Source: Cristatella mucedo
Lineage: Eukaryota > Bryozoa > Phylactolaemata > Cristatellidae
Assembly: GCA_009760855.2 (NCBI GenBank)
Contig: WPIO01000025.1
Coordinates: forward strand, 1,533,501 to 1,597,500
DNA: 64,000 nucleotides
Direction: 5' to 3'
The position numbers and the translations under genes were made by a program. Below, in pieces: positions 22,304-25,300 of the stretch (position 1 is its first letter; every line of letters begins with the position of its first letter). The notes under the pieces are model-generated. The model ran no database searches, was not told the DNA's origin, and saw only the letters and a program-made list of their open reading frames with translations.

Positions 22304-25300
22304 GTAGGTTCTCGCTATCGGTCTTGTTTGCGGTACGTAAACCACTCGTTAGCGGCAGGCTTATAAGGTAGATAGCAAGAAGCCAAGCACACACAAGAGC
22401 TACACGAGCCGGAATTGACTGAATGTGGCATTAGCCTTCCTGTTCGGATCGTGACTAGCTTAAATCCCGTAGGCACTATCGTCCTAGTTGCGGCTATAGC
22501 TGTCCAGCACGAACCTTGTTCTGTATCAGGATGGTTGCCGAGGACCGACGGATGCATTTTTGTTTTAGTATGCATGCGAAACGTACGCTCGTTAGCTGCA
22601 CGATGATTGAGTCACTGGTTCTCTCCATTAGAGAACTGGGCCTCAGTGGGCCCCATTTATAGACTGGAATGGAAGATGCATTAGCATTTACCATTGTTGT
22701 TGCCAATGTGGTTGCTCCCGAGTTTTGTCAGATAGATAATGAGCCGGCAGAGCTTAATTTCCTCTTTTCTCTGTAATGTCGGCGCCCTCTAGATGCATGG
22801 TCGATTCAAGCGCTATCGAGTACCAAGCCGATCTCCGGCCTGCTTTTAGGCGACGTACACGGTACAGGGAAGTGGCAGGACTGCAGGTGTAGACCGGAAG
22901 ATAGTGCAACACCTCAAAGTAAGTAATAAAGCGACTCCAAAAGACAGAGGAGGTCTGAAAGAATTTTGAGGGCGACGTTGCATTGTCGCGCCGGCACTGA
23001 CATGCGCCTCTACAGCTTCTTGTGTCGCCAACGCAAGCAGATTTCGCTGTACGAAGTCTCGGTGCAATACCGCGGCTGAAGTGCTGCAATAACTCGTATG
23101 TGTTCCAAAATACTAAACACACGTGCACTCACCCAGGAGAAGAATCAACTCATTCTGACCAGCTCAACTGTTAGCTCCTACCCCGATTCTAGCAAAAGGC
23201 GACCAGTAATTGAAGATCGACGAATAAACAAATCAACGGCTAGTAGGAGCAACGATTGCTCCCGTCGTTTTCCTGTAGCTGGATACTATCCAGCGCCATA
23301 TAGCTGTGTCGTGACCCAAGCTTGCAACGCGGCTACGACGTTGCAGAGAAAACTCACTTATAGGATCGATAAGCGCCTGCACAACATCTATGAAACAGAG
23401 AGACAGCGCTACGGTCGAGCAGAAATAACCGACGGCCGAGCTGAGATGGCTCGGGAAAGGAAGCCTACGAAGCACCTCGTGGCAGACAGCAGGGTGAGTT
23501 ATTGCTTATTTCCTTTTGGCATCGCTGGCATCGCTGCTGGAGACAGACACCATAGGGCAGTGTTACTCAACCTTTGGTTAGCGACCCCTTTGGGGGTCGA
23601 ACAACCCTTTCGCTGGGGTCGCATAAGACCATCTGAAAGCACGCATTTCCACATTTCGTACACAATAGTTTTATGGTTCGGGGTCGCCACAACTTGAGGA
23701 ATTGCATTAAAGGGTCGCGGCATTAGGAAGGTTGAAAACCACTGCTGTAGTGTATCAAGGGATCACGGTGGCACTTGCAAGAAAGCATGGTGCCCGTTAG
23801 CTTGATTCAGCTCATCGCCCCAGCCGACTGCCACCTCATCTCGTCTAGCTAGCAATTTAAGCCGAGTGTTTTACAGGCTTAGCACCAATTCCTGAGCCAC
23901 ATTACACAACTATACTGTATGCTGATACGGCCCTGTAATCTCGAAGCAACCCTTGGATGTATAGAACGTCAGGAAGACAACATTGGCTACAAGAGTTGTC
24001 CACATGCTGAGACTAAAATTCAATTTTCTTCCGCTGGAAACCTTTGGGATTCACTAGGTGTCAGATCGGCTCAGTTAATGTCAAGTACTGATTAATAGCG
24101 TGCCATTGACATTTTGCCGCGTTGCTAGGGCCATCGATGTAACGAGTTGTAGCAATTTAGGGTTGGCGAGCACAACTCAGCTGCTGGTATTTATACTAAG
24201 TAACTGCAATTGACCACGATGAACGATTGGCTCTAATAAATATGATTCATTTGAACAGCGCCCCAAGAGAACTTAGTCTCTTTCAGTCGCTTCATATATA
24301 TGCCTCGGGGCTCGACCTCAAGACCTCAGCCAGACCTTTGTCGGGGCGAGAGCCTTAAGCTCTTGACCAAACCAGCTGAATATGCAGGTAGACATGATGT
24401 AGTAGCTTGTTCCAGGCTCCTTGCACTAGTGCATACAGCTGCAGCAACGTAACTCTAATATTAGACGCATAGAACATAGTGCCTCTGGGTAAGCAGAGTC
24501 GAATATAATTCCAGGGCATCGTGTCGATTCCTTCAGGGAGTAAGCAGCCTGGCGATGACGTTTGTAGCGACGACTAGTTCGTTGAACTCATAAGAAACCG
24601 TGACTGTGAGCTCGATACATATCGGAAGTTCTTCTCGGAAAGATGTCGACGATAGGTTGCATCAACCTATTAATGACAATGCATCTATGCGGTGTCTTAA
24701 GAGTGCTTAATCTCATTCTAACCGCTTCTAAAAGATCAGACAGAAGTCGTACACCTAATGATGCTTGTATGGCTGTCTGTAACTCCACTGAGCCACAACG
24801 ACTAACTGGGTCTTTTTCGCCAGCGTTTTGTATAGCACACTCAAAGCCTAAGCAGCTTTCGGTACGCATTCGGTAGCCAGCAGGCTCAATCTTACGGAAC
24901 GAGGTGAAAGTAAGCTGCATTGCTGAGTCAGGACAGCAGTTGAGGTAGTGAGTAGTAGCATGGAAATAACAGCTCAGGATGACTGGTAAGGATGTCCCAC
25001 AGTCGACAGCAAGAGAGTGGATGTCGTTGCATGAGAATGGTTGAAGTGAGTTCCGCAGTCTAGGACCTGCAGAGCAAAAACTTTTGTCACTAACGGTCTG
25101 TAAGCAGAGGAGTGGAACAGCTAATTTATTTCCACAGAGGACCTGGGGGCACGAGGGGGGCTGATACTGGTGCAGCTCTTGAGCTAAACTTGAATGAGCT
25201 AAGCCGCCCGTGACTGGCCTTGTGCATCAGCTTAAAAATTTTTAACTGTATTCTTTGATCAACGGTAAGCCATAAAATATCCCTCAACGAGGAAGACACA

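What the first reader, a model, noticed from the sequence alone, without database searches (positions are those of the whole stretch)
23558..23744. SPIN-like hAT element in an invertebrate genome, copy 1
The 187-bp sequence has the ends and internal words of the SPIN elements, hAT/Buster transposons known for horizontal transfer among tetrapods and reported, as I recall, in a bug, a snail and a planarian. The flanking bases show the expected 8-bp nnnTAnnn pattern. A match this close between an animal of this type and mammals points to transfer rather than vertical descent.
Basis: partly seen in the sequence, partly recalled or inferred. Interest (0 to 1): 0.72.

Follow-up and report, generated by a model that had tools for sequence, protein, structure and literature searches.

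The report
Mammal-type SPIN transposon in an invertebrate
The sequence is one old copy of a short jumping-gene remnant present in more than a thousand copies in this genome and almost identical, as far as could be checked, to one found in rodents, so it most likely jumped between distant animals, as this family is already known to do.

Summary
Window 23558-23744 is a 187-nt non-autonomous hAT element; a second copy lies at 40843-41028. Its 3' end (29 nt, up to 3 mismatches) occurs 1,263 times in the unnamed 572-Mb host genome; the reversed pattern occurs 0 times. Copies with intact ends show 8-bp nnnTAnnn target-site duplications far above a partner-swap control. A ~320-nt form, consensus of 8 copies, matches 220 of the 225 positions of the rodent URR1/SPIN sequence as I recall it. 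No SPIN reference could be fetched, so that comparison rests on memory. But one internal stretch of it, absent from both window copies, was typed and met in the genome only. About 8% non-CpG divergence from consensus (14 copies) marks an old burst. No transposase with these ends was found; 40 of 138 hAT-domain loci were examined. Horizontal transfer is the best explanation; donor, direction and host species are not shown. SPIN is published in Rhodnius, and a hAT with significant identity to SPIN in Biomphalaria at about 1,000 copies. Probably a new host record of a known phenomenon.

The parts
23558..23744 (+). SPIN-like non-autonomous hAT element, copy 1 (187 nt); the most diverged of the 29 aligned copies
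23550..23557 (.). left target-site duplication of copy 1, CCATAGGG (decayed, TA core kept)
23745..23752 (.). right target-site duplication of copy 1, CTGTAGTG (decayed, TA core kept)
23558..23573 (+). left terminal inverted repeat (consensus CAGCGGTTCTCAACCT)
23729..23744 (+). right terminal inverted repeat (consensus AGGTTGAGAACCACTG; 15 of 16 complementary to the left one in the consensus)
40843..41028 (+). SPIN-like non-autonomous hAT element, copy 2 (186 nt), flanks AAGTAGAG / AACTAGAA

Best explanation
A miniature, transposase-less copy of the hAT transposon SPIN. Shown: the two ends, short inverted repeats, 8-bp nnnTAnnn duplications, more than a thousand dispersed copies around one consensus, and several forms (187, ~320, ~480-570 and ~920 nt) that share the same ends. 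Inferred: a full-length SPIN entered the germline of an ancestor of this animal from another animal, its transposase cut and pasted internally deleted derivatives by recognising the shared ends, and the family then died and decayed. The copies in the window are inert remnants.
For: 1,263 pattern matches, reversed control 0. TSD signal against swapped partners. Of 20 copies hand-picked along the list of exact pattern hits, 14 are full-length elements of 165-191 nt, mean K2P 0.091, 0.082 outside CpG. In 3 of the 20 (L073, L083, L088) a longer insert lies between consensus positions ~90-93 and 107. A stretch of the recalled SPIN/URR1 sequence that both window copies lack was typed and met in L073: 91% over 54 aligned positions, E 8e-15. 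At least 40 places carry it (40 scored of 89 first-look candidates). The consensus of 8 long copies matches the recalled sequence at 84/84 and 136/141.
Against: The SPIN reference is recalled, not fetched. No transposase was found between the same ends: 0 of 40 PF05699 loci examined (of 138 matches) hold a match to the consensus, and among the open frames listed for 5 longer candidates I saw none that looks like a transposase (judged by eye, no homology search). The host species is unknown, so element and host-gene divergence could not be compared.
Confidence: 0.86

Rival explanations
1. A different hAT family that merely shares the common CAG-GGTTCTCAACC type of ends with SPIN.
For: hAT ends are short and alike between families (recalled); no SPIN reference could be fetched.
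Against: Near-identity covers 220 of 225 recalled positions, including parts far from the ends, and includes a stretch absent from the window copies.
Confidence: 0.09
2. Vertical inheritance of an ancient element since the split between this host and vertebrates.
For: Host relatives are not held here, so absence from them was not tested.
Against: Copies carry ~8% divergence from their consensus, while the consensus itself is ~98% identical to the recalled rodent sequence; hundreds of millions of years of neutral descent would erase that (general knowledge).
Confidence: 0.03
3. Vertebrate DNA contaminating the assembly.
For: None found.
Against: The 187-nt copies fetched are embedded in contigs of 0.5-25 Mb, each with its own flanks and often its own target-site duplication, and the abundant 187-nt form has an internal deletion and linker that the recalled rodent sequence lacks.
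Confidence: 0.02

Closest known systems
SPIN (SPACE INVADERS) non-autonomous elements of tetrapods; rodent URR1 (sequence and equation of the two names recalled, from no call)
   Same: 84 of 84 positions at the 5' side and 136 of 141 at the 3' side between the recalled sequence and the 321-nt genomic consensus; 8-bp nnnTAnnn duplications
   Different: The abundant 187-nt form has its own internal deletion with a short linker; the ~320-nt form keeps ~100 nt more in the middle than the recalled rodent form
hAT of the snail Biomphalaria glabrata with significant identity to SPIN, about 1,000 copies (PMC5440852, one passage read)
   Same: Similar copy number; the passage says that DNA transposons there were not recent invaders and that no intact transposases were detected
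SPIN elements of Rhodnius prolixus (PMC11614815, passages read)
   Same: SPIN in an invertebrate, ascribed to horizontal transfer
   Different: That host is a blood-feeding insect; here the arthropod cuticle domain PF00379 gave 0 matches, though the tool warns that this does not show absence
OposCharlie1 (OC1)
   Same: DNA transposon transferred horizontally among animals (PMC3621081, passages read)
   Different: Its sequence was not compared here

Membership tests
hAT superfamily | 8-bp target-site duplication | tested here: met
   mean 6.3/8 against 4.1 swapped; 7 of 19 perfect; copy 1 itself only 5/8
hAT superfamily | short terminal inverted repeats beginning CAG | tested here: met
   consensus ends 15/16 complementary (copy 1 arms)
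hAT superfamily | hAT transposase between the ends in an autonomous member | tested here: inconclusive
   0 of 40 PF05699 loci examined, of 138 matches, hold the consensus ends; none recognised by eye in 5 longer candidates; 98 PF05699 loci not examined
Buster group of hAT | nnnTAnnn target consensus (recalled) | tested here: met
   TA in 15 of 19 left and 15 of 19 right flanks
SPIN | near-identity to a tetrapod SPIN consensus over the whole non-autonomous element | tested here: inconclusive
   220 of 225 positions, but the reference is recalled
SPIN | distribution that requires horizontal transfer | not testable with these tools
   no relatives of the host held; species unnamed
MITE | short, non-coding, high copy number, homogeneous length | tested here: met
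   14 of 20 picked copies are 165-191 nt; 1,263 matches of the 3' end

The most novel reading that the evidence does not exclude
The host belongs to an invertebrate lineage in which SPIN has not been reported, neither arthropod nor pulmonate snail, and its SPIN consensus, about 98% identical to that of rodents, records a transfer across phyla in the era of the tetrapod invasions, so that this animal or its parasites were part of the chain.
Probability: 0.35. Interest if true: 0.6.

Novelty: new member of a known kind. Interest (0 to 1): 0.4.

Why it matters
SPIN is one of the clearest cases of DNA moving between animal phyla. Another invertebrate with over a thousand copies, several internal deletion forms and a datable burst would add a node to the transfer network, and its ~320-nt form gives sequence suited to placing it in the SPIN phylogeny. 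It changes no principle: invertebrate hosts are already published.

Tried and rejected
Looked for a SPIN reference in viral contigs, genome contigs, plasmids and phages and as letter strings in papers: 0 hits in all. Three primary SPIN papers are not held. Considered the recent hAT family L029-L048 as the autonomous partner: rejected, because its 20 loci (about 1.5 kb on each side of the domain) hold no match to the consensus at E up to 1. Considered 20 further, lower-scoring PF05699 loci of about 6 kb, at least two of which are pieces of that same recent family: no match at E up to 0.1. Considered L103-L107 as full-length SPIN: L104-L107 are forms of ~320, ~550-570 and ~920 nt, and L103 looks like two copies, one inside the other; I recognised no transposase frame among those listed. 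Host identification failed: cytochrome oxidase family and motif searches and the molluscan haemocyanin family did not complete. The 18S fragments found by pattern are rearranged or internally deleted; I read them from memory as non-vertebrate and could not place them in a phylum. A search on genome size was followed to PMC12202648, where the figure was a read total: coincidence.

Full report
What is there. Window 23558-23744 is a 187-nt element starting CAGTG and ending CACTG. It matches the genome-wide consensus at 167 of 187 ungapped positions; the best of 20 shuffled windows gave 80. A second copy lies at 40843-41028 on the same strand, 84% identical to the first. A DNA search scored 40 of 1,981 first-look candidates: the window copy at 100% and 39 others at 85-88%. 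A 29-nt pattern from the 3' end with up to 3 mismatches occurs 627 times forward and 636 times reverse; the reversed control pattern occurs 0 times.

Structure. I aligned 29 copies: the two in the window and 27 others among the 40 best matches to copy 1, so they lean towards copy 1. The majority consensus is 187 nt with 16-nt ends that are 15/16 complementary. Among the 19 copies that pass a simple test for intact ends, the 8 bases on each side agree at a mean 6.3 of 8 (7 perfect), with TA at positions 4-5 in 15 left and 15 right flanks. Swapping right flanks among copies gives 4.1 and never above 4.95 in 2000 trials. Copy 1 itself keeps only 5 of 8. The ten copies left out of that count are mixed: some still have perfect duplications (L005, L011), others none. 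In the long forms, L092, L099 and L101 have perfect 8-bp duplications.

Age and forms. To lessen the bias towards copy 1, I hand-picked 20 hits along the 100 listed of the 1,263 pattern hits. All listed hits have 0 mismatches in the 29 nt, which leans towards well-kept copies. Of the 20, 14 are full-length elements of 165-191 nt, mean K2P 0.091 from the consensus and 0.082 outside CpG; the other six are partial or interrupted. With a rate of 1-5 per billion years per site (assumed, not tested) 8% means roughly 16-80 million years. Transfers of DNA transposons among vertebrates and invertebrates are put at about 45 to 15 million years in the passage read (PMC3621081). Three of the six, L073, L083 and L088, hold longer inserts where the 187-nt form is short. 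A 67-nt piece of the L073 insert and its edge gave 40 scored matches of 89 first-look candidates. Ten of these were fetched. The eight under 360 nt gave a 321-nt consensus with a few undecided bases; the two longer ones (478 and 509 nt) were left out, and two of the eight (L097, L100) have damaged ends. A 121-nt piece from the 5' side of the L073 insert occurs at 18 places.

Comparison with SPIN. No SPIN sequence could be fetched. I therefore used the rodent URR1/SPIN sequence as I recall it. The 187-nt consensus aligns over its whole length, 178 of 225 columns identical with 38 gap columns, all in the middle. The 321-nt consensus matches at 84 of 84 and 136 of 141. Could my recall have been shaped by the window? 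For the ends, yes in part: a string sent, before the consensus, is not in either window copy but is a base-by-base mosaic of the two, so it is weak evidence. It remains recall and not a database match.

Autonomous partner. PF05699 matches 138 places. Of these, 63 score at E up to 1.1e-16 and look like one recent family; in its first 20 loci, 19 align to L034 at 98.3-99.9% and none holds a match to the consensus. Another 20 lower-scoring loci hold none. That is 40 of 138 examined. Among the open frames listed for five longer SPIN candidates I recognised no transposase; no homology search was made on them. So the source of transposase is not found: it may be lost, or lie among the loci not examined.

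Host. The 18S fragments in L070 and L071 are rearranged or shortened. From memory I read them as not vertebrate. The arthropod cuticle domain PF00379 gave 0 matches, but its controls rang nowhere either and the tool warns that this does not show absence. Requests for mitochondrial genes did not complete. The phylum is open, and the claim of transfer across phyla rests on the host being an invertebrate.

Mechanism. hAT transposase acts on the two ends, cuts the element out and inserts it with an 8-bp staggered cut; internally deleted copies with intact ends are mobilised in trans (general knowledge of hAT elements). The ends, duplications and deletion forms are shown here; the enzyme step is inferred for this family.

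Novelty. SPIN in invertebrates is in print: in Rhodnius (PMC11614815, passages read), and a hAT with significant identity to SPIN at about 1,000 copies in Biomphalaria glabrata (PMC5440852, passage read). Literature searches were made; the last, for 'space invaders', 'transposon' and 'SPIN' together, listed 3 papers. Most subscription papers are not in that library. I recall Lymnaea as a further host; no call shows it. This is a new host record or, if the host is one already studied, known.

Noticed in passing
L029-L048 (own genome; first 20 of 63 top PF05699 matches): A second, very recent hAT family: 19 loci align to L034 at 98.3-99.9%, mostly over about 2.2 kb, with open frames of up to 641 aa in these 20; it looks Ac-like to me and may still be active.
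   Followed up: partly
window 38098-38267, 51174-51342, 60749-60921: Three copies, about 85% alike, of a short repeat that looks to me like a tRNA-derived SINE; not tested.
   Followed up: no
window 11474-11654, 17322-17505, 51783-51967: Three copies of another ~185-nt repeat, 83-85% alike.
   Followed up: no
window 18100-18576: Fragment of a LINE-type reverse transcriptase (RVT_1, E 2.4e-8); similar-looking frames in other loci, judged by eye.
   Followed up: no
window 55576-57711 and 59624-60379: Probable exons of an NWD1-like gene: HTH_NWD1 and WD40 over their cut-offs in the first; the second has only weak WD matches below the cut-offs.
   Followed up: partly
L070 about 1200-2190, L071 481-1670: Dispersed, rearranged or internally deleted 18S rRNA gene fragments; in L070 the 3' part is followed by an inverted 5' part.
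   Followed up: partly
L054 1222-1974: Open frame with Gly/Tyr-rich repeats, long Asn runs and a PYPV-rich tail; no Pfam match at E up to 0.01.
   Followed up: no
window 33520-33751, 63294-63427, 26470-26598: Simple-repeat tracts that match each other in steps of two bases at 88-99%.
   Followed up: no
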